10,297 nucleotides of DNA from Campylobacteraceae bacterium (lineage in GTDB: Bacteria > Campylobacterota > Campylobacteria > Campylobacterales > Sulfurovaceae). The position numbers were made by a program, and so were the translations under genes. Below the pieces are notes generated by a model. The model ran no database searches and was not told the DNA's origin. It saw only the letters and a program-made list of their open reading frames with translations. Each line of letters begins with the position of its first letter. Within the stretch, counting starts at the first letter, position 1. The DNA lies in the NCBI GenBank assembly GCA_027056615.1, contig JALUKJ010000219.1, positions 1-10,297 on the forward strand, in the 5' to 3' direction. Shown piece after piece: positions 141 through 9,733 of the stretch.

Positions 141-1472
141 ATGAAAAAAAAATTTATTACTCTTGCTCTACTATCTATCTTTAGTTCTACCCTATTAGCT
201 GAAACTATTTTATCTTTAGGAGAGCGAGAAAAAACCAATATTGACTATATGCCATCTAATGATGTTCAAGATACCTTAAAAATTAAACAAGACACAACTC
301 CTTTTACCAAAGATATTATTGGTATGAGCAATGAAGAACAACTAGAATATGATAGAATCTATAATGAAAAGTTCTTCGCTCCATGGACACAGAGTGAAGT
401 AGAACTCTCAAAAGGTTCAGCAACATGGCAATTTAAATATGCTAAAGATAGAACCTACCGAAGTGATGGTCAACTTATTCCTAATAGTTGGTATAAATAC
501 GAAATAGAAAACTCTAACTTTAAAGATTTTCTAACACTAAATACTCCTGCCATAACTTTAAGACATACTAACTTACGGCTATTTCCTAGTAGTGAAGGTA
601 TCTACTACGACCCAACTCGTGCTGGAGAGGGATTCCCTTTTGACTATTCTCAAAACTCGGCACTACATATAAATACCCCTATTATAGTTTCTCATTACTC
701 ACAAGATAAACTCTGGGTCTATGCTCAAGCTCCATTTGCCTCTGGATGGATAAAAGTTGAAGATATTGCCTTTGTAGATAGTAAGTTTCAACAAGCTTTT
801 CAAAATGAACATTATGCTATTACAGTTAAAGACAATCTAAATCTTTCAGATGACAATGGTGAAATATCTTTGGTAAAGATGGGGAGTATTTTTCCTATTG
901 ACCCAACAACAAAGAAATATATTATTGCTAAAAAAAATGAAAAAGGTTTTGCTACAGTTGAAAAAGTAACGGTTAATGACATTGATATTATTGCACAAAA
1001 ACCTATTAAATTTAACCCTTTTAACATCACTTATATCTCCAAACAACTCGTAGGTGAACCTTATGGATGGGGAGGAAAAGAGAAGTGCCGTGACTGTTCT
1101 GCATTAACACAAGATTTCTTCTCTCCTTTTGGTATCTACCTACCAAGAAATTCAAGACAACAAGCAAATGCAGGAAATGAGTTTATCTCTCTTAAAGGGC
1201 TAAGTTCCAAAGAGAAAAAAGAGACTATTTTAAACTATGCTAAACCATTCCGTTCACTACTTTTTGTTCCAGGTCATATTACTCTATATTTAGGAGAGAA
1301 AGATGGGGAACCTATTATCTTACACAACTATTGGGGTGTACGTCTAAACGATGGAAGCAAAAGGGTCATGGGTAGAGCAATTATTACTACTACCAAACCT
1401 GGGGCTGAACTTCCTAATGTTAAAAAGAAGAGTATGTTAATTAATACACTAACTGGAATAGTTAATTTTTAA
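141..1472 (+). CDS. Secreted SH3b1/NlpC-P60 family cell-wall hydrolase
   Basis: Predicted periplasmic peptidoglycan endopeptidase or amidase of 443 residues. An N-terminal signal peptide is visible (MKKK, hydrophobic core, likely cleavage after LLA at about residue 20). Residues about 60-130 resemble the helical N-terminal region of SH3b1-type NlpC/P60 proteins. Two SH3-like modules follow: about 135-212, containing RLFPSSEG and ending in SGWIKVEDIAFVD, and about 225-285. The C-terminal papain-like domain starts with YGWGG (309-312). Its catalytic Cys is C319 in RDCSALTQDF, followed by LPRNSRQQ (334-341), the catalytic His H379 in PGHITLYLG, and a third polar residue, probably H395 in ILHNYWG. 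All three active-site positions are present, so it should be active. The family cleaves bonds in peptide stems; exact specificity cannot be read from sequence. The 3' end overlaps the convergent phosphoesterase gene by 24 bp. Confidence 0.9.
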   Translation: MKKKFITLALLSIFSSTLLAETILSLGEREKTNIDYMPSNDVQDTLKIKQDTTPFTKDIIGMSNEEQLEYDRIYNEKFFAPWTQSEVELSKGSATWQFKYAKDRTYRSDGQLIPNSWYKYEIENSNFKDFLTLNTPAITLRHTNLRLFPSSEGIYYDPTRAGEGFPFDYSQNSALHINTPIIVSHYSQDKLWVYAQAPFASGWIKVEDIAFVDSKFQQAFQNEHYAITVKDNLNLSDDNGEISLVKMGSIFPIDPTTKKYIIAKKNEKGFATVEKVTVNDIDIIAQKPIKFNPFNITYISKQLVGEPYGWGGKEKCRDCSALTQDFFSPFGIYLPRNSRQQANAGNEFISLKGLSSKEKKETILNYAKPFRSLLFVPGHITLYLGEKDGEPIILHNYWGVRLNDGSKRVMGRAIITTTKPGAELPNVKKKSMLINTLTGIVNF

Positions 1473-2198
1473 AGATACAAACTCTTTAGATACTTCAATT
1501 ACCTCTTTTGTTTCAATGCAAAATGCACTTAACTTTGCTCCATGACTCTTTCCACAACCTGTGTCTATGGAGGCAAAGTTTTGCCCAATTACAACCGACT
1601 CAACATTTACATGCCCATAGATATTAAAAATAGGTGCATCAGGAGAGGGTCTATTTCGATTACTCAATGCATAAAACTCTAAGTGCTTAGGTTTACTATC
1701 CTTTAAGTACCAAAAGTTACCAATGCTTCCATGGCTAATAACAATAGGTAGTTCATAGCCATCAAAATTTCCCAATTCTAAATAGATTGGCAAAGACTCA
1801 ATCCACTCTAAATCTCTTTTAAGTGTCTCAATATTATCAGGCTTTTTTAAAACTACATAGGGGTTATCTTTAACCTGTTTGAGAAGACCATAAGATTGTA
1901 ACATTGGCACACCTCCAACATACATCCATATATTATTTAAATTTGGCTCTTCACACTTAGCAATAGAGTCTAAAAACTGCTTTCCATGCTCTAACATATA
2001 ACCCTCATGGTTTCCCCGAACCACAGCAAAAGCTCTCTCTTTTACAAAAGCAATAACCTCCCTACTCTTTTTTCCACGATTGACAAGGTCACCTACAAAG
2101 ATAAGTTTTGCATTTTTAGGTAGCCTCTCTACTAATTCCAAGAGCATATTATACTCACCGTGAACATCACCAATAACAAAATGTCTATCTTTTTTCAT
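1449..2198 (-). CDS. Metallophosphoesterase, PP2A/ApaH-like serine/threonine phosphatase
   Basis: Cytoplasmic 249-residue protein of the calcineurin-like phosphoesterase family. The three signature blocks are intact: GDVHGEYN (D11, H13), GDLVNRG (D37, R41) and RGNHE (N63, H64), which bind the two metals. Later metal-binding histidines are likely in VISHGS and IYGHVN, the latter followed by SIDTGCG. This layout is shared by lambda-phosphatase-like PrpA/PrpB enzymes and by ApaH-type Ap4A hydrolases, so the substrate could be phosphoproteins or dinucleoside polyphosphates. There is no signal peptide. The start is supported by an AAGGA about 10 nt upstream and by the GDVHG block lying at residue 10, as usual for the family. 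Its stop lies inside the last codons of the convergent NlpC/P60 gene. A TATACT box lies about 34 nt upstream. Confidence 0.88.
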   Translation of the reverse strand: MKKDRHFVIGDVHGEYNMLLELVERLPKNAKLIFVGDLVNRGKKSREVIAFVKERAFAVVRGNHEGYMLEHGKQFLDSIAKCEEPNLNNIWMYVGGVPMLQSYGLLKQVKDNPYVVLKKPDNIETLKRDLEWIESLPIYLELGNFDGYELPIVISHGSIGNFWYLKDSKPKHLEFYALSNRNRPSPDAPIFNIYGHVNVESVVIGQNFASIDTGCGKSHGAKLSAFCIETKEVIEVSKEFVSLKINYSS

Positions 2199-2231
2199 GG
2201 GTTTTTCCTTTTTTTTAATTTTTGCAAGGAG

Positions 2232-2237
2232 AGTATA
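2232..2237 (-). promoter_or_regulatory. Putative -10 box for the metallophosphoesterase gene
   Basis: On the minus strand this reads TATACT, 34 bases before the start codon at 2198, in an AT-rich 159-bp gap between the phosphoesterase and lipoprotein genes. No -35 box is evident. A -10 match alone in AT-rich DNA is weak evidence. Confidence 0.3.
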
Positions 2238-2357
2238 TCAGAGTTTACTTTTTAAGTATATAAGTTAATTTTCTTCTAATTTAATAAAGAATTTAAAATG
2301 AATTTTTGAGAAAAATAAGGAAATTTAAGGAATTTTGGAGTCTAAAAACTCCTTTTC

Positions 2358-2990
2358 CTATTCTCTAATCTCTACAATAGTATCTTTATTAACACTATCC
2401 CAAACATTATCCATACCTTTGTTAGTCATTGCCATACAGCCAATAGTCCAGTCATGCGATAACGTATAGTCGTCTCCATGTCCATCCCAATTCCAAGGTA
2501 CTTGTGAATGAAAGGTAATTCCTCCACCAGGGTTAACACCCAATGCTCGTGAAGCTTCTATATCTTCTCTATTTGGGTAAGAGATAAGAATCTCTTTGTA
2601 GTACTTAGGGTCACGACGAATATCAACAATATGGTAAACTCCTTCAGGTGTCTTTTTATCACCTGCTTCTCGCTTTGGACCAACTGGATGTTCTCCTAAT
2701 GAAATTCGATGTCGACTTAACATATTTCCATCTGTATCAAAAAGAACAGCAATACGTTTTGATTTAACCACAACTATTTTAGAGGCAATACCTTCTCTAA
2801 AGACTTCATCATTCTGGTTACACTCAAAGATATCATCTTCTAATGTACTAATTGAAGTATTTTGTTCTATTGTTATATTAGTATCCTTAACTCCTTCTGT
2901 TGTATTAGAATCCTTAGGAAAAGGTGGCTTCTTACCACATCCTGCAAAAACTATCATACCTATTAGTAAAACTAGTATCCCTTTTTTCAT
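2358..2990 (-). CDS. L,D-transpeptidase (YkuD fold) lipoprotein, YafK/DpaA-like
   Basis: A 210-residue lipoprotein with a basic, hydrophobic signal and lipobox-like VFAGC (acylated Cys18), then a Ser/Thr/Asn-rich linker to about residue 55. The catalytic domain (about 70-210) carries the YkuD-fold marks: GEHPVGPKREAGDKKTPEGVY (starting at residue 99), FHSQ with H161, and the Cys box TIGCMAMTN with C185. The family forms or cuts L,D (3-3) cross-links, or links or releases lipoproteins from peptidoglycan. The Cys box departs from the usual S-x-G-C-(I/V)-R: Ser is Thr182 and the usual Arg is Ala187. The following AMTN resembles YafK/DpaA-type proteins, so a hydrolase (L,D-carboxypeptidase or amidase) is as likely as a transpeptidase. 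Placement in the periplasm follows from the signal. AGGA upstream supports the start. The methyltransferase gene lies 81 bp upstream on the same strand. Confidence 0.87.
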   Translation of the reverse strand: MKKGILVLLIGMIVFAGCGKKPPFPKDSNTTEGVKDTNITIEQNTSISTLEDDIFECNQNDEVFREGIASKIVVVKSKRIAVLFDTDGNMLSRHRISLGEHPVGPKREAGDKKTPEGVYHIVDIRRDPKYYKEILISYPNREDIEASRALGVNPGGGITFHSQVPWNWDGHGDDYTLSHDWTIGCMAMTNKGMDNVWDSVNKDTIVEIRE

Positions 2991-3071
2991 TATTTTATCC
3001 TAAAATTTTATTTTTACAACTAAAAAGATTACAGACTCTTTTAAATATCTCATCCATCTTAGCATCTATTT

Positions 3072-3716
3072 CTAACATTTTTGAAATACTACTATATTAT
3101 TGTTAATAGTTTTTATCAATTTTAACTCAACTTTCTCAGCCATTATCTCAAAACTTTTAGGGGTAAAAAAACTAATGTGTGTTGGGTCTCTTCTGTACCA
3201 CCAATTTAAAAATAAATCATCTTCTTTTGGTGGAAATTTTGTCATTAACACAATATATCCATTAAAGTTAAGATGTCTAGTCAAAAGCTCTAAAGTTTCA
3301 AGAGGTTGACATAGATGTTCAAAAACCTCTGTTGATGTAATTAGGTCATAACTTTTATCTTCATAAACTTTTTTAGGTGCATAAAATAGGTCATAAATAT
3401 CAACCTCTAAACCTCGTCGTTTTAAAAGTTCTGAAAAGACAGGGCTAGGACCTGAACCAAAATCTAAAGCTGTCTGAATATTTTCTAAATATAGAGCAAT
3501 AGAGAGGTCAATAAACTCCTCAAACATCTCTACATATCCCTTATTTTCTAAACTATTATTGTGTTGGTCATACTGTTGTTTTTCTAATTTTATATCTACT
3601 CTTTGTGAATCATTTAATGAAATAAAGCCACAAAAACAACAACGATAGTAATACAATGATTTCTTTTTATCTTCTATTTGCTTTACTCTACTATTACAAA
3701 TTTTACAAAAGTACAT
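3072..3716 (-). CDS. Class I SAM-dependent methyltransferase with N-terminal zinc-ribbon-like motif
   Basis: Cytoplasmic 214-residue protein. Residues 1-31 hold CxxC (C4, C7) and CCxC (C26, C27, C29), probably a zinc ribbon. The methyltransferase core starts at about residue 80: motif I is ALDFGSGPSP (83-92), followed by the acidic end of strand 2 in VDIYD, then YDLITSTEVFEHL (motif II/III region) and GYIVLMTKFPP (motif IV/V). This arrangement matches the Methyltransf_23-like group; the methyl acceptor cannot be told from sequence. The C-terminal part with WWYRRDPTHISFF is typical of that group, in which this His-bearing stretch is often conserved. A TATAAT on the minus strand lies 28 nt upstream. 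The gene may be cotranscribed with the downstream lipoprotein gene; an open frame of 27 codons fills the 81-bp gap between them. Confidence 0.85.
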   Translation of the reverse strand: MYFCKICNSRVKQIEDKKKSLYYYRCCFCGFISLNDSQRVDIKLEKQQYDQHNNSLENKGYVEMFEEFIDLSIALYLENIQTALDFGSGPSPVFSELLKRRGLEVDIYDLFYAPKKVYEDKSYDLITSTEVFEHLCQPLETLELLTRHLNFNGYIVLMTKFPPKEDDLFLNWWYRRDPTHISFFTPKSFEIMAEKVELKLIKTINNNIVVFQKC

Positions 3717-3743
3717 ACAACTCTACTCAGTTTTTTAACTGTA

Positions 3744-3749
3744 ATTATA
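3744..3749 (-). promoter_or_regulatory. Putative -10 box for the methyltransferase gene
   Basis: Perfect TATAAT on the minus strand, 27 bases before the ATG at 3716, in the 147-bp divergent intergenic region. A small palindrome, CAGTT-TTTT-AACTG (3728-3741), would sit at or just after the transcription start and could be an operator, but five-base arms in AT-rich DNA are weak evidence. Confidence 0.35.
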
Positions 3750-3838
3750 ACCAACTATTTACTAATTTAAATATAAAAAAAATAAACTAGAAAAAATAAC
3801 AATAAACCAATTAAGTGAAAAGTTGATAAAGTATCTTA

Positions 3839-3844
3839 TATAAT
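3839..3844 (+). promoter_or_regulatory. Putative -10 box for the small secreted protein gene
   Basis: TATAAT, 19 bases before the ATG at 3864, with an A/T-rich upstream stretch and no clear -35. Transcription would begin near 3851, almost on top of the AAAGGA ribosome binding site (3851-3856). The leader would then be very short, so the true promoter may lie slightly upstream. Confidence 0.3.
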
Positions 3845-3863
3845 AAATATAAAGGATGAATTA

Positions 3864-4151
3864 ATGAAATTACTATTAAGCTTAATGATTGTAGGAACTG
3901 TTGTATTTGCAGGAGGAGACATTTTACCAGTTAAAGTTAAAACTAAATTTGAAGAGCCTGTCGTTGTACAGAAACAACAACCACATCAAAGAGGTTGTTA
4001 TAAACCAAACATTAAAAAATGTCCAGATTGTGTTGATGTAGCAGAAATTTGCCCAGATGACCCAAGCCTACCAGTCGCAGAGACAGTACCATGTGAAGGT
4101 CTTTTAAGACAACAAGCGGCAGCAAGAGCAGCTCAACAAGCAGGTCACTAG
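3864..4151 (+). CDS. Small secreted cysteine-rich protein of unknown function
   Basis: Not recognised. The 95-residue product starts with a clear signal peptide (MKLLLSLMIVGTVVFA, probable cleavage after Ala16). The mature part, about 79 residues, is rich in Lys, Pro and Val near the start and has five cysteines: C45, C53, C56, C63 and C77, including CPDC (53-56). The end (81-95) is an Ala/Gln/Arg-rich stretch. The CxxC and odd cysteine number would fit disulfides in the periplasm or a metal site; this is inference. A good ribosome binding site (AAAGGA) lies 7 nt before the ATG, a -10 box lies upstream, and a strong hairpin follows 10 bases after the stop, so it looks like a real single-gene transcript. 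It runs opposite to both neighbours, so context gives no clue to its role. Confidence 0.72.
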   Translation: MKLLLSLMIVGTVVFAGGDILPVKVKTKFEEPVVVQKQQPHQRGCYKPNIKKCPDCVDVAEICPDDPSLPVAETVPCEGLLRQQAAARAAQQAGH

Positions 4152-4160
4152 AAACATCTT

Positions 4161-4180
4161 TTACCACCTCTTGGTGGTAA
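4161..4180. terminator. Hairpin between convergent genes, likely terminator
   Basis: TTACCACC-TCTT-GGTGGTAA: perfect 8-bp stem with a four-base loop, 10 bases after the stop of the small secreted protein gene and 16 bases from the stop of the convergent rhomboid gene. The following bases (CCTTATTC) are only moderately T-rich and the other side has no T-run, so termination on the plus strand is plausible and on the minus strand weaker. Its position between two convergent stops supports the call. Confidence 0.6.
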
Positions 4181-4196
4181 CCTTATTCAAAATATA

Positions 4197-4874
4197 CTAA
4201 ATAAATATATAATTCTCATAAATAGGTACTAAATAGTTGTAAAACACTACCAACAATAATAAAGAAACAATAATATAACCCAAAACAAATTTAGGATTTT
4301 TAGCAATCACAAATCCTCCAACCATACCAGCAAACAATCCACCAACATGAGCTGATATATCAATATTTGGAACAGCAAAACCTATCACTAAGTTAATAAT
4401 CAAAATAATTCCAAAATCTTTCATAAAAGCTTTAAATTGTCCTCCTAGTCTATCTTTGTGAACAAATACAAATCCTGCCAATGCTCCAAAAAGACCAAAA
4501 ATAGCTCCACTTGCTCCAACAGCAACACCACCTACATGCATATACATTGACAAAAAAGCACCAAAAAATGCTGAAATAAAATATAGACTCAAATAAGCAG
4601 TTTTAGAAAAAAGTTTCTCAACCATTTTTCCAACAATATAAAGAGAGAGCATATTCATAAAAATATGTGTTCCACTAGAGTGAATAAACGTAGAGGTAAC
4701 CAATCTATATAGTTCACCTTTAACAATCACTAAGTAGCCATGTAATGCACCTGTCACAAAAATTGTCTCAGCTAAATTATCACTTATAGTAGAGATTAAA
4801 AAGAGCAAAATGCTCACAGCCATTAAACTATAGGTCAAGGGTATGTCTTTAAATTTTTCAAGATTATTATTCAT
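4197..4874 (-). CDS. Rhomboid family intramembrane serine protease
   Basis: Inner-membrane protease of 225 residues that cuts within or near the transmembrane segments of substrates. Six or so hydrophobic segments are visible. Family marks in order: the loop ELYRLVTSTFIHSSGTHIF with the conserved Asn in FMNMLSLY (N74), catalytic Ser122 in GASGAIFG, the glycine-rich LFGALAGF helix, and catalytic His176 in SAHVGGLFAGMVGG. Both catalytic residues are present. The frame could be opened 17 codons further upstream at a TTG (4925), but that would overlap comEC by 47 bp and has no ribosome binding site. The ATG at 4874 is preferred: it falls 4 nt after the comEC stop and starts with MNNNLEKFKD, as usual for a rhomboid with a short cytoplasmic N-terminus. 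Substrates are unknown. It is the last gene of the minus-strand run. Confidence 0.9.
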   Translation of the reverse strand: MNNNLEKFKDIPLTYSLMAVSILLFLISTISDNLAETIFVTGALHGYLVIVKGELYRLVTSTFIHSSGTHIFMNMLSLYIVGKMVEKLFSKTAYLSLYFISAFFGAFLSMYMHVGGVAVGASGAIFGLFGALAGFVFVHKDRLGGQFKAFMKDFGIILIINLVIGFAVPNIDISAHVGGLFAGMVGGFVIAKNPKFVLGYIIVSLLLLVVFYNYLVPIYENYIFI

Positions 4875-4878
4875 AAGC

Positions 4879-6147
4879 TTATAATACCAAAATAAACAAC
4901 CAAAGAGCAAATAGTAGAGCAACAAAATATAGCATATAGAAGAACCATCGCCAATATATAGATAAAAATGAAAGTATTAAATAGACAAAAAGATAGCTCT
5001 TTTCTAATTTAAACGCAACAGTATCAGCATGTAGGGTAAATAGTTCTTGAAGATAACTATCAAAAATGCCACCTATACCCAACAAATGAAAAAGAATACT
5101 TATAGGGTAGAAAAAAGTAAATCCTAAAGAGAGCAGAGGTGAGTAGAGTTGTAGAGGGCTAGTTATAGGAAAAAACGTATGAACAATTGGTAACATTAAA
5201 ATAAATAGACCAAAGCTTATCAATAATGTCATCAAATATTTATTAATATGTGAGAAGTAATGTAACAGTAAAAAGATATAAAATACCCCTGCAATAGAGA
5301 ACCAAAAAGCCAAAGAGAGCAGAAGCTTAGGGAAAATAATCAATAACACTAAGACAATCATCGCTAAAAAAGAAAATGAAACCAACTCCATACCTAAAAT
5401 GAGCAGTACCCAACCTGCAATAAGCATAACATAAGAGCGAAGCAAAGAGGGAGGAAAACCTACAAACCACACATAAAATCCTAAAATAAAAAGGACTATA
5501 AACCCAATGTCATAGAGGTCAAACCGATAGGGGAAAAACCTCTGTTGCAAAGGTCGATAGCCTAAACGTATAAGAAAAAAGAGCAATGCAGAGAGAATAG
5601 AGAGGTGAAACCCACTCAACGCAATCAGATGACTCACTCCCAAACTTGAAACAGACTCTCGCAATGACTTACTTAGTGGTGTTGCAAAATAGATAGCTTT
5701 ATAGAAACTACTTATATCTTTATTGCTATGTTGTTTCTCAATAAAGTGTAAAAAATTAGCTTTAGGGTTCTTTTTCTCATCATAAATATCATTTACATTT
5801 GAAAATATAAAGGGGGTTCCTAAGTAGTCTGAAAACTTCATATCAACATGAGGAAAAAGTTTAACACGTATCTTAGATGTTAAATCTTTAGAGTGAATTT
5901 TTGTTCTTGAAAAAAATCGTAAATCTAAGATAGGAGAGTAGAGTTTTAAGATGGTATAGTAGTTATCATCTTTCCACTTTTCATAGGCTTGAAGTACTTG
6001 AACATCAGTATAGAAAAAAGGTTTCTCCTTAAACTCTTTGTAATCTCCATATAGAAAATAGAGACGAACAGTAAGTAGTAAAAAAATAAAAATCATACTA
6101 ATCCACAACTCTTTTAGAGTCACAAAAAGTTTTGGTTTTTCAAGCAT
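4879..6147 (-). CDS. comEC: ComEC/Rec2-type DNA uptake channel, short form
   Basis: Inner-membrane competence protein of 422 residues thought to pass single-stranded DNA into the cytoplasm. A membrane segment near residues 15-33 is followed by a soluble region (about 35-160) standing where the OB-fold domain sits in ComEC. The Competence domain begins with GVSHLIALSGFHLSIL (170-185), the clearest family signature, followed by FPPSLLRSYVM (231-241) and many membrane helices to the end. Longer ComEC proteins (about 750 residues) carry a C-terminal metallo-beta-lactamase-like domain; it is absent here and the frame ends cleanly, matching the short ComEC usual in Campylobacterota. The start is 9 nt after the dnaB stop with no obvious Shine-Dalgarno, suggesting translational coupling. 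From memory, Helicobacter pylori also has comEC next to dnaB. Confidence 0.88.
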   Translation of the reverse strand: MLEKPKLFVTLKELWISMIFIFLLLTVRLYFLYGDYKEFKEKPFFYTDVQVLQAYEKWKDDNYYTILKLYSPILDLRFFSRTKIHSKDLTSKIRVKLFPHVDMKFSDYLGTPFIFSNVNDIYDEKKNPKANFLHFIEKQHSNKDISSFYKAIYFATPLSKSLRESVSSLGVSHLIALSGFHLSILSALLFFLIRLGYRPLQQRFFPYRFDLYDIGFIVLFILGFYVWFVGFPPSLLRSYVMLIAGWVLLILGMELVSFSFLAMIVLVLLIIFPKLLLSLAFWFSIAGVFYIFLLLHYFSHINKYLMTLLISFGLFILMLPIVHTFFPITSPLQLYSPLLSLGFTFFYPISILFHLLGIGGIFDSYLQELFTLHADTVAFKLEKSYLFVYLILSFLSIYWRWFFYMLYFVALLFALWLFILVL

Positions 6148-6156
6148 AGATAAATC

Positions 6157-8622
6157 TTAGATAGTAGGAAGCTCTATATTCCCCGTATCTCTAGTGTCTA
6201 CATTTCCATCTTGTTCAAAAACAACTTCAAAAGGTGCATCTCCTTTATGAGCATCAACAAAGCGAGTAAAACGTTTTTGAAACAGTAACCGTACTGTTCC
6301 TGTTGGTCCATTTCTATGTTTTCCAATAATAAGTTCCGTATCCTCTTCAGGCTTATTTTGAAACTTGTTCTCATACTCTTTACCATCTGCCTTGGCTTTC
6401 ATCTCTTTCTCTTTTTCTGCTGCTTCACGATAGACATCATCACGATATACGAACATTACTATGTCTGCATCTTGCTCTATTGAGCCACTTTCTCTCAAAT
6501 CCGACAACATAGGACGCTTATTATCCCTACTCTCAACCCCACGGTTTAGCTGTGAAAGAGCAATAATTGGCATCTGCAACTCTCTAGCTAACTGCTTAAG
6601 CCCCCTAGATATTTCAGAGATAACCTGCTGTCGCCCCTCAGAGCTATCACCAGACATCAACTGCAAATAGTCAATAATTGCCATGCTTATTTCGGGATGT
6701 TTAGCTTTGAGTTTTCTAAGTTTAGAACGAACATGGTGAATGGTTGCTACCCCACCATCATCAACAAAGAGTTTTCTCTTTGCCATTCTATCAGCAGAAC
6801 GTGATAAATTAGTCCACTGCTCATCTGTCAAATCCCCAACTCTAAGTTTTTGAAGAGGAATAGAGGTTTCAGTAGAGAGAAGCCTAAGCATCAACTGCTC
6901 TGCTGGCATTTCTAGTGAAAAGAAAGCAATGCCCTCACCTCTTTCTATGGCTTTTTGGGTCATGTTTAAGACCAAAGAAGTGTTATGTGTAACGGTCATA
7001 TCTTCTAGTAAAAAGAGTCTGTTTCCATCTATTTCAAACCCATAGTAATCATCTATTTTATCAAACTCTACTTTTATACCTGTGTGTTGATGATTACGAT
7101 TAGAAGCTGATGGACGAGCCTGTTTTCTTGCTATTTTTGTAGGTATCTCATCTAAATTTCCAACAATTCTTACCCTATAGACTTCACACTCATATCCAAT
7201 ACTTTTAATTCTTGCCATTTTTGATTTAAACGAACTTTTAAACCCTAAACTATCTGCTAAAAATTTAATCTGCTCTGCTAATAGCTTTAATTTTTGTGTA
7301 ATCTCCATTACATGAAATTTATCATCATAATAACCATCACTATCAAGTAATCCTGCTAAAAGCTCTAAACGGTTTTTACGACTATTAATTAAATAGTGCT
7401 GAGGAATATGTTTGTTATCTGAAAGATTTAATTGCTTAATATTTTCTTCTAAAGAAGAATCTTTAGAGTTTTCATCTCTATGTAATTTATATCTTTTGTG
7501 AGCAGGATTTTTATTTAAAATCCCTATAGTTAATGGAATATCTAAACTATGAGACAAATCTTTTAAATAAATATCTATCTCTTTATCTGTACTTGTAATT
7601 TGTGCAGAATTAGAATTTCCATCACCAAGCCATAACCCTAAAAAATAAGGCTCTATTTCTAACTTTTTTTCAGTAAAATCAACAGCTACAGAGTAGCCTT
7701 TATAATTTGTTTTAAATTTATTAGACTTCTTTACATAGTCTTCTACAGAAATATTTAAAACATCTCCATGTTTATGTTTTCCCTCATTTCGTGAACGTTT
7801 AAGTGATAAAATATGCGATTTATTAACCCTATAATCTATCCCTTTATTTTGACGAATCCAATACATCTCTTCACGCCCACGAGCTAAAGAGAGAACTTTT
7901 CTCGGAGTTGAATCATTACCCATTAGTAACTCTCCAACTTCAATATCTTCCACCTTTTTAAGCTCTCCAGAGTACATTAAAACCTTTGTACCAAATCCAA
8001 AGCATTTTCCCATAGCTGGCCGAGCAGCAATAATTATCAAGTCACCCTTACCAAACCCTTGTGTATGGTCATTCAAATTATGAAACCCTGTATCGACTCC
8101 AAGTAGTTTTGCATTACCTATAGCCTTTAGACGATTAATCTCTTCTATCATCGCTAAAGTTATCTCTTTGGACTCTCTAAAGTCATCACTTGTTGAGTTT
8201 TGGGTAATCTCATAGAGCTTTTTTTCTACAAGGTTCATTACCTCTTCGGTAGGAAGGTTATCTTCTATGGTAACTTTTTTAATGGTCGTTGCTAAGGTTG
8301 CTAAAGCACGTTTAGTAGAACGAGACTTAATCTCTTCAATATAAGCATCAGTATTAGAGATAGGGTTAGCAGCCAAAATATCTAAAAGAGCTACCTCATC
8401 ATAATTATTTGTACCACTAAGTTTAGTCTTTAAAAACTCCTCATCAATGGGTTTATCCTCTTTTGAGAGTTCCTCCATTGCCACAAAGATATGCTGATGA
8501 AAAGGCAGATAAAAATCATGTGGCTTAAGCTTAGCAGCAATCTCTTCAAAAGTTTTTGGGTCGAACATAATAGCTGAAAGAACTGCCCTTTCAATATTTA
8601 AGTTATACATATTTTCACTCAT
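6157..8622 (-). CDS. dnaB: Replicative DNA helicase DnaB precursor with intein in the P-loop
   Basis: Hexameric helicase that unwinds DNA at the replication fork. The precursor has 821 residues; removing the intein (207-547) leaves 480, the normal DnaB length. N-extein (1-206): the helical N-terminal domain opening with NLNIERAVLSAIMFDP, a linker, then GVDTGFHNLNDHTQGFGKGDL leading to the Walker A start, RPAMGK. C-extein (548-821): it resumes with T-S to complete GKTS, then FFSLEMP with the catalytic Glu571, Walker B in SMAIIDYLQLM (D651), IALSQLNRGVESR, LRESGSIEQDADIV, and IIGKHRNGPTG with the likely arginine finger R770. All motifs are intact, so spliced DnaB should work. Unspliced protein has a split ATP site and should be inactive. 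No cysteine occurs in the exteins. It lies 49 nt after ispG and 9 nt before comEC. MSENMYNL is chosen as start; Met5 is possible. Confidence 0.96.
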   Translation of the reverse strand: MSENMYNLNIERAVLSAIMFDPKTFEEIAAKLKPHDFYLPFHQHIFVAMEELSKEDKPIDEEFLKTKLSGTNNYDEVALLDILAANPISNTDAYIEEIKSRSTKRALATLATTIKKVTIEDNLPTEEVMNLVEKKLYEITQNSTSDDFRESKEITLAMIEEINRLKAIGNAKLLGVDTGFHNLNDHTQGFGKGDLIIIAARPAMGKCFGFGTKVLMYSGELKKVEDIEVGELLMGNDSTPRKVLSLARGREEMYWIRQNKGIDYRVNKSHILSLKRSRNEGKHKHGDVLNISVEDYVKKSNKFKTNYKGYSVAVDFTEKKLEIEPYFLGLWLGDGNSNSAQITSTDKEIDIYLKDLSHSLDIPLTIGILNKNPAHKRYKLHRDENSKDSSLEENIKQLNLSDNKHIPQHYLINSRKNRLELLAGLLDSDGYYDDKFHVMEITQKLKLLAEQIKFLADSLGFKSSFKSKMARIKSIGYECEVYRVRIVGNLDEIPTKIARKQARPSASNRNHQHTGIKVEFDKIDDYYGFEIDGNRLFLLEDMTVTHNTSLVLNMTQKAIERGEGIAFFSLEMPAEQLMLRLLSTETSIPLQKLRVGDLTDEQWTNLSRSADRMAKRKLFVDDGGVATIHHVRSKLRKLKAKHPEISMAIIDYLQLMSGDSSEGRQQVISEISRGLKQLARELQMPIIALSQLNRGVESRDNKRPMLSDLRESGSIEQDADIVMFVYRDDVYREAAEKEKEMKAKADGKEYENKFQNKPEEDTELIIGKHRNGPTGTVRLLFQKRFTRFVDAHKGDAPFEVVFEQDGNVDTRDTGNIELPTI
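6982..8004 (-). mobile_element. Full-length intein with LAGLIDADG homing endonuclease, in dnaB
   Basis: In-frame 341-codon protein-splicing element, DnaB residues 207-547. Splicing block A: Cys207 begins CFGFGTKVLM, followed by VEDIEVGELLMG. Block B: YRVNKSHILSL with His270; the usual Thr three residues before this His is Asn267. Endonuclease: FLGLWLGDG (327-335, Asp334) and LLAGLLDSDG (421-430, Asp429), the two LAGLIDADG motifs with their acidic residues. Blocks F and G: YYGFEIDGNRLFLLED then TVTHN, with penultimate His546 and terminal Asn547; the +1 extein residue is Thr548. Every residue needed for N-S shift, Asn cyclisation and DNA cutting appears present. The insertion point is between Lys and Thr of the Walker A GK-T. 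G+C counted in four sampled 60-base lines is 23-33%, against 38-42% in two lines of helicase DNA. Confidence 0.96.
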
Positions 8623-8671: not shown

Positions 8672-9733
8672 TTAATTCTGCTTAGAAGCAAAATCCTCAA
8701 CCTCTTGCACAAATCTATCTACCAACTCATTTTCAGGAAGCCGTGCTACTACTTCACCTTTAACCATAACAAGCCCTGACTCTTTACCATAAGCAATGGC
8801 AACATCTGCATGTTTTGCTTCACCAATGGCATTTACCACACACCCCATTACCGACACATCCATAGGAGTTTTAATATGAGCTGTTCTTTTTTCTACCTCT
8901 GCTACAGCACTTACTAAGTCTGCCTCTATTCGACCACATGTTGGACAAGAGATAATATTTAAGCCATCTTTAACACGTCCAGAATCTTTTAATATGGCTT
9001 TTCCAACTTTTATCTCCTCTTCAAGTTCACCTGTAATAGAGATTCTCATGGTATCACCAATGCCATCAAGCAACAATGCTCCAAGACCAATAGATGACTT
9101 AACTGTTGCATGAAAGATAGTTCCTGCTTCGGTTACACCCAAATGAAATGGGTAGTGGTTTTTAGGTCTCAACATTCTATAAGCATCTACGGTTCGTTCA
9201 ACATCAGAAGCTTTTAAAGAGACTTTAATGTCTGTAAAACCTAAATCTTCTAAAAACTTAATATTGTACTCTGCACTTGCTACCATACCCTTGGCTGTTG
9301 CTCCATATCTATCATCAAACTCTTTTTCAAGTGACCCTGAATTAACCCCAATACGAATTGGTAAATTTCTCTCTTTACACGCTTTGACAATCTCTTTTAT
9401 ACGACTCTTCTCTCCAATATTCCCTGGGTTAAAACGAATAGCATCAACCCACTTTGCAGCTTCGAGAGCCAATCTATAGTTAAAGTGAATATCAGCAATA
9501 AGTGGTAGAGAAATCTGCTCTTTAATATTCTTAAGTGCCAAAGCATCTTCCATTTTAGGAACAGCCACACGCACCATATCAGCCCCTGCAAAGTGCAAAC
9601 GGTTTATCTGCTCTACTGTTGCTTCTACATTATTGGTATCTGAATAAGTCATAGACTGTACGGAGATAGGAGCATCGCCACCTACGGCTACATCTCCTAC
9701 ATAGATTTTTTTTGTTGGGATTCTTTCTATCAT
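8672..9733 (-). CDS. ispG: 4-hydroxy-3-methylbut-2-enyl diphosphate synthase (flavodoxin/ferredoxin)
   Basis: Penultimate enzyme of the MEP isoprenoid pathway (also called GcpE): it reductively opens methylerythritol cyclodiphosphate to HMBPP in the cytoplasm using a [4Fe-4S] cluster. The protein has 353 residues, the usual size for the short bacterial form. The TIM-barrel part opens with [12 protein letters not shown] and continues through [34 protein letters not shown] and HLGVTEAG. The C-terminal cluster domain supplies the ligands Cys263 and Cys266 (SCPTCGR), Cys298 (MGCVVN) and Glu305 (GEAKHAD). An AGGAAG lies 5-10 nt before the ATG. It precedes dnaB by 49 nt and may share its transcript. 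The palindromic repeat region lies directly upstream, between it and priA. Confidence 0.97.

What the first reader, a model, noticed from the sequence alone, without database searches (positions are those of the whole stretch)
6982..8004. Intein splits the Walker A loop of the replicative helicase DnaB in a likely campylobacterotal genome
Sequence shows a 341-residue insert that starts with Cys, ends His-Asn and is followed by Thr, placed exactly between Lys206 and Thr548 so that the GK-T of the P-loop exists only after splicing. DnaB is an essential gene, and DnaB inteins, including P-loop ones, are known from other phyla (for example mycobacteria). I do not recall one described from Campylobacterota, so the host lineage may be new. 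Every round of helicase production would depend on splicing, which gives a possible post-translational control point over replication.
Basis: partly seen in the sequence, partly recalled or inferred. Interest (0 to 1): 0.72.

Follow-up and report, generated by a model that had tools for sequence, protein, structure and literature searches.

The report
Mobile intein inside DnaB helicase ATP-loop
A self-splicing, probably still mobile protein element interrupts the ATP-binding loop of the replicative helicase of a Sulfurovum-like bacterium; it is a good example of a known kind of element that relatives and phages also carry, not something new in kind.

Summary
Window 6982-8004 (-) encodes a 341-residue class 1 intein between Lys206 and Thr548 of an 821-residue DnaB, so Walker A (GK|T) is complete only after splicing. 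No second dnaB was found in the assembly (94.5% complete). The intein carries a LAGLIDADG endonuclease domain with intact acidic residues; by sequence and predicted fold PI-SceI is nearest among solved structures. The mycobacterial P-loop DnaB intein is another kind: class 3, no endonuclease.

The host lineage is not rare: 20 of 397 sampled Campylobacterota genomes carry it in DnaB; Bacteroidota and phages carry relatives, nearly always at GK|T. My paper searches found no description in Campylobacterota. One genus holds full, mini and empty alleles, and the window's intein groups with another species' intein against its own helicase: horizontal movement. A regulatory role is unsupported. New member of a known kind; the freshest facts are this homing series and further inteins in GyrA, GyrB and DnaG of the same genome.

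The parts
6157..8622 (-). dnaB, 821-aa precursor ORF
8005..8622 (-). N-extein, DnaB residues 1-206, ending ...ARPAMGK
8005..8025 (-). 5' part of Walker A (A200-K206), cut off from T548 by the intein
   Evidence: sequence; Walker A consensus recalled
6982..8004 (-). intein, 341 aa (precursor residues 207-547)
7666..8004 (-). N-terminal part of the splicing (Hint) domain, intein residues 1-113; Cys1 codon 8002-8004
   Evidence: boundary approximate, from the mini-inteins
7813..7824 (-). block B, N61-K62-S63-H64; N61, S63 and H64 in 150 of 150 full-length rows
   Evidence: block name recalled
7093..7665 (-). LAGLIDADG homing endonuclease domain, intein residues about 114-304
   Evidence: boundaries approximate
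7618..7641 (-). LAGLIDADG motif 1, LGLWLGDG (residues 122-129); D128 in 150 of 150
7333..7362 (-). LAGLIDADG motif 2, LLAGLLDSDG (residues 215-224); D221 in 150 of 150, D223 in 149 of 150
6982..7092 (-). C-terminal part of the splicing domain, residues 305-341, ending T339-H340-N341 (codons of H340-N341 at 6982-6987)
6979..6981 (-). Thr548, both Walker A Thr and +1 splicing nucleophile
   Evidence: role recalled
6160..6981 (-). C-extein, DnaB residues 548-821

Best explanation
A class 1, PI-SceI-type (Hom_end_hint) intein with a LAGLIDADG homing endonuclease, allelic to a family that occupies the GK|T position of P-loop ATPases. Splicing (inferred): Cys1 attacks the Lys206-Cys1 bond, Thr548 takes over the N-extein, N341 cyclises, and the 480-residue DnaB is released with Walker A rebuilt. 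Spread (inferred): the endonuclease cuts intein-free dnaB at the P-loop and repair copies the intein in; endonuclease loss then gives mini-inteins, and loss or replacement gives empty sites. Shown here: boundaries, catalytic residues, fold prediction, sporadic presence, intein/helicase tree conflict. Not shown: splicing, DNA cleavage, any effect on the host.
Against: No splicing or cleavage was measured. The helicase tree did not reject window + G397 (AU p 0.059), and 10 of 31 inner branches of the genus tree were unresolved. No clear co-conversion tract in the flanks. Empty sites differ from the window's 42-bp site by 5-13 bases and occupied ones by 6-9, so the site shows no difference that explains who is invaded. 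The model's last 13 residues have pLDDT under 50. Genomes are mostly MAGs.
Confidence: 0.94

Rival explanations
1. The intein has been kept as a redox or stress switch on DnaB, as proposed for the mycobacterial P-loop intein: splicing stalls under oxidation and pauses replication.
For: Same Walker A site as M. smegmatis DnaBi1, whose splicing is inhibited by H2O2. Cys1 is the nucleophile here. Cys273 of the window is Cys in 120 of 150 rows.
Against: DnaBi1 is class 3 and uses a block F Cys with a Cys partner; here the nucleophile is Cys1, and columns with Cys in 15 or more of 150 rows other than residue 1 (near 166, 257, 273) lie in the endonuclease part. Of three mini-inteins two have Cys1 alone and one Cys1 plus Cys70. 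Close relatives live without the intein.
Confidence: 0.06
2. The intein still splices but is no longer mobile: the endonuclease is intact by descent only.
For: No cleavage shown. Endonuclease residues evolve faster than splicing residues. Decayed members exist (L022/L088, L071).
Against: Both LAGLIDADG motifs and their acids intact; purifying selection on that part; window and G397 inteins are closer than their helicases.
Confidence: 0.2
3. Assembly or binning artefact: the true chromosome has an intein-free dnaB.
For: Draft MAG of 467 contigs. In the relative G408 two contigs of one MAG carry a mini and a full-length allele sharing an exact 80-bp overlap, so mixed alleles do occur.
Against: One uninterrupted ORF, same junction in many independent records including single-contig isolate genomes.
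Confidence: 0.02

Closest known systems
PI-SceI (yeast VMA1 intein)
   Different: About 26% identical, 341 against 454 residues, other host gene and site, other kingdom.
Mycobacterial P-loop DnaB intein (DnaBi1, site b)
   Same: Inserted at the Lys|Ser/Thr of DnaB Walker A.
   Same: GK|T junction. L097, L098 and L103 inteins are 62, 58 and 60% identical to the window's and sit in phage DnaB or RecA-fold helicases.
   Different: TerL1-a is known to me from passages of PMC5050341 only, no sequence compared. In the tree the phage inteins lie beside, not inside, the cellular DnaB clade.
Bacteroidota DnaB P-loop inteins (L066, Emticicia, Flavobacterium, Fibrisoma)
   Same: Same junction; L066 intein 60.8% identical although the helicase is only 36.2% identical; sister clade 94/87.
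   Different: Form their own clade (99/92), so transfer between the phyla looks old. L071 has lost its LAGLIDADG acids.

Membership tests
Class 1 intein | Nucleophile Cys/Ser/Ala-type start: Cys at residue 1 | tested here: met
   C1 in 150 of 150 full-length rows
Class 1 intein | Block B His, C-terminal His-Asn, +1 Cys/Ser/Thr | tested here: met
   H64, H340, N341 invariant; +1 Thr
Class 1 intein | Ligates its flanks and excises itself | not testable with these tools
   needs expression or mass spectrometry
Hom_end_hint (PI-SceI-type) intein | Profile score above the curated cut-off | tested here: met
   PF05203 78.2 bits, cut-off 32.1; PF05204 51.6, cut-off 21.1
Hom_end_hint (PI-SceI-type) intein | Shared two-domain fold | tested here: met
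LAGLIDADG homing endonuclease | Two motifs with their acidic residues | tested here: met
   D128 and D221 intact; PF14528 36.7 bits, cut-off 22.5
LAGLIDADG homing endonuclease | Cuts the intein-free site | not testable with these tools
   needs a cleavage assay
Class 3 P-loop DnaB intein (mycobacterial) | No N-terminal nucleophile, block F Cys instead | tested here: not met
   Cys1 present; no Cys near block F conserved (criterion)
Redox-switch intein | Conserved second Cys able to trap the nucleophile in a disulfide | tested here: not met
   no conserved second Cys in the splicing domain; 2 of 3 mini-inteins have Cys1 only. A switch of another kind is not excluded
DnaB, Campylobacterota type (PRK08506) | Equivalog score above cut-off | tested here: met
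   661.5 bits, cut-off 596. That this model is the Campylobacterota one is recalled

The most novel reading that the evidence does not exclude
The family is a P-loop specialist that homes from Walker A to Walker A and has passed between phage helicases and cellular DnaB of at least two phyla. In Sulfurovum-like bacteria it belongs to a set of inteins that interrupt catalytic motifs of several replication enzymes at once (here DnaB, DnaG, GyrA and GyrB), so that the supply of working replication machinery depends on protein splicing at four places and could be throttled jointly.
Probability: 0.1. Interest if true: 0.7.

Novelty: new member of a known kind. Interest (0 to 1): 0.34.

Why it matters
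DnaB P-loop inteins are known, so the element itself adds a member. What it offers is a natural series: in one genus the same site is full, mini or empty, with a second DnaB site in similar states, and with cultured relatives (Malaciobacter, Sulfurospirillum) carrying the allele. That makes the homing cycle, the fate of endonuclease-free copies and the cost of an intein in an essential ATPase directly testable. It also shows that Walker A sites of unrelated ATPases hold related inteins, which bears on whether inteins choose P-loops or merely survive there.

Tried and rejected
First reading of Bacteroidota intein L066 as nested inside Campylobacterota inteins (support 85/83, long branch) was dropped: with three more Bacteroidota rows they form their own clade.

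Direct recent phage-to-host transfer: not supported; phage inteins are outside the cellular DnaB clade. Over nine host-gene groups the tree needs 8 changes, the fewest possible, so jumps between different genes are old or rare.

Site drift as the reason for empty alleles: no difference seen. Co-conversion of flanks: no clear signal. Plasmids as vehicle: 18 of 72,556 records match, best identity 40%, 2 with one place over 80% of the query.

First regular expression parsed 2 entries and was corrected. In one search two parses belonged to the second DnaB site and one (P0050) stopped early; they were dropped or re-read, as were duplicate loci (174 to 158 rows). P0060 is truncated and not counted; P0156 starts inside the intein and was left out of the site count.

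Not opened: most listed papers. A 2016 survey of prokaryotic intein clustering (Novikova and others, recalled, and cited by papers) was not among the listed papers and I did not see it; it may list Campylobacterota inteins.

Full report
Observation. The window holds on its minus strand an 821-residue DnaB ORF (6157-8622). Residues 207-547 (6982-8004) form a 341-residue insert that starts with Cys, ends His-Asn and is followed by Thr. The flanks are AARPAMGK and TSLVLNMT: together a Walker A motif that the insert splits between Lys and Thr.

Host and copy number. The window's genome is a MAG of 2.4 Mb, 467 contigs, 94.5% complete, 2.2% contaminated; intein and DnaB are found once each. Two other contigs with DnaB_C matches carry RadA-like genes.

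Distribution. Of 397 sampled genomes of the phylum 24 match the intein, in 14 of 68 genera. Reading the junctions, 20 are DnaB at GK|T; G250 is another ATPase at GK|T; G205 looks like a phage terminase at GK|T with Ala in place of Cys1; G010 looks like a terminase with the intein two residues before GK; G296 appears to be a chance match (protein names of the last four are recalled). A protein search gave 4856 matches at E 1e-5 or better among the 7998 candidates scored; only the best 120 were listed. Named carriers include Sulfurovum, Sulfurimonas, Sulfurospirillum, Malaciobacter, Poseidonibacter, and in Bacteroidota Emticicia, Flavobacterium and Fibrisoma.

Papers. Searches for intein with DnaB+Campylobacter (3 papers), Epsilonproteobacteria (9), Sulfurovum (0), Sulfurimonas (0), Arcobacter (5) and Campylobacterota (0) showed no title or abstract start about such an intein. 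Of these I opened passages of one, PMC6390638, which concerns GyrB and DnaE inteins of a deltaproteobacterium. I saw passages of PMC6195587, PMC5050341, PMC5784728, PMC7765530 and PMC5874633 and the abstract of PMC10643990. The library lacks most subscription papers.

The homing series. In 34 genomes of the genus, 31 have a DnaB match; 28 can be scored at the P-loop: 8 full-length (341-343 aa; two cut by a contig end), 3 with a 163-aa mini-intein that lacks the endonuclease, 18 empty, G408 counting in two classes. Three more have DnaB pieces that miss the site and three have no match. The DnaB tree of 29 rows needs at least 8 changes of presence (10 of 31 inner branches unresolved). The three mini-inteins share one linker, yet their helicases as one clade are rejected (AU p 0.009), so mini-inteins too seem to have moved, or been left, across lineages. 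In G408 one contig carries the mini form and another the full form, sharing an exact 80-bp stretch where one ends and the other begins: both alleles appear to coexist in one sample.

Horizontal movement of this copy. The window's intein joins that of G397 at 100/100 while its helicase joins G417 (99/96, 84/85). Forcing window + G417 on the intein data is rejected (p 3.5e-15); forcing window + G397 on the helicase data is not quite (p 0.059). Protein identity to G397 is 86.5% for the intein and 80.8% for the helicase; to G417 79.2 and 93.0%. The simplest reading is transfer between the window's and G397's lineages after they split; the direction is open. The intein is poorer in G+C (0.30) than its exteins (0.36, 0.40), as in the other five genomes compared.

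Across genes. tblastn finds relatives in 660 of 50,697 phage records, 405 with one place over at least 80% of the query, and in three IMG/VR contigs. All seven phage junctions that I read (L097-L103) are GK|T, in DnaB, RecA-fold and SF2 helicases. Among 315 complete inteins in 311 proteins from three searches, 311 have GK before and Thr or Ser after; one of these (P0125, second intein) is not in a Walker A, so 310 of 315 split Lys from Thr/Ser of Walker A or its SF2 form, two sit three residues upstream in the same motif, and three lie elsewhere (the SF2 form is recalled). Limits: all three searches were seeded with GK|T inteins and show only their best 120 hits, and 119 of the 315 are DnaB from one search. 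P-loop preference of inteins in general is in print. In the tree of 37 inteins, gene groups are kept together with the fewest changes possible, so jumps between genes are old.

Function. Every functional DnaB must pass through splicing if no second gene exists; that follows from the sequence. That this is used as a control is inference without support: the element is absent from most close relatives, the redox-toggle cysteines of the mycobacterial intein have no counterpart, and the pattern is what a homing parasite predicts. The endonuclease part is under purifying selection, weaker than the splicing part.

Same genome, other inteins. GyrB (intein after DADVDG), GyrA (after ...AAMRY, across two contig ends) and DnaG (ending GN|C inside the zinc motif) also carry inteins. 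With DnaB this makes four replication proteins interrupted at catalytic or metal-binding motifs (motif roles recalled). In the genus 21 of 34 genomes match the Intein_splicing family, 20 over the cut-off. This was not pursued.

Verdict. A real, well-delimited, probably active intein; new member of a known kind.

Noticed in passing
own genome G000:C442 (L111:81-3572 +): GyrB with a long intein after DADVDG (followed by SHIQTLL), 1164-aa frame.
   Followed up: partly
own genome G000:C109 (L113) and G000:C61 (L112): GyrA with an intein right after ...AAMRY; its two halves lie on two contig ends.
   Followed up: partly
own genome G000:C327 (L114:255-3071 -): DnaG primase with an intein-like insert in the zinc motif, ending Gly-Asn before a zinc-ligand-like Cys.
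   Followed up: partly
genus relatives, e.g. L072, L073, L077, L078, L079: A second DnaB intein site (RESG|SIEQ) in states of 433/434, 203, 152, 139 residues or empty.
   Followed up: partly
genus of G000, 34 genomes: Intein-rich genus: 21 of 34 genomes match Intein_splicing; among 9 such ORFs tested are GyrB (3), DNA polymerase III alpha (2), ribonucleotide reductase alpha (2) and dCTP deaminase (1); one had no family.
   Followed up: partly
P0251, P0266: Two related inteins in one Walker A, three residues apart (PG|[ST]GK|T).
   Followed up: no
P0131: A CDC48-type AAA protein with related inteins in both of its PPGTGK|T loops.
   Followed up: no
L071:3275-5689: Cytophagales DnaB with a 269-aa P-loop intein whose LAGLIDADG motifs have lost their acids: a decaying copy.
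   Followed up: partly
L090 (G205): Terminase-like frame with a GK|T intein that begins with Ala, so not class 1.
   Followed up: no
G408: L073 and L074: Full-length and mini alleles of the P-loop intein in one MAG, on contigs sharing an exact 80-bp overlap.
   Followed up: partly
window 141-6147 and 8672-9733: Neighbours by ORF list only, names recalled and untested: NlpC/P60-like (141-1472), metallophosphatase-like (1449-2198), L,D-transpeptidase-like (2358-2990), methyltransferase-like (3072-3716), rhomboid-like (4197-4925), ComEC-like (4879-6147), IspG-like (8672-9733).
   Followed up: no
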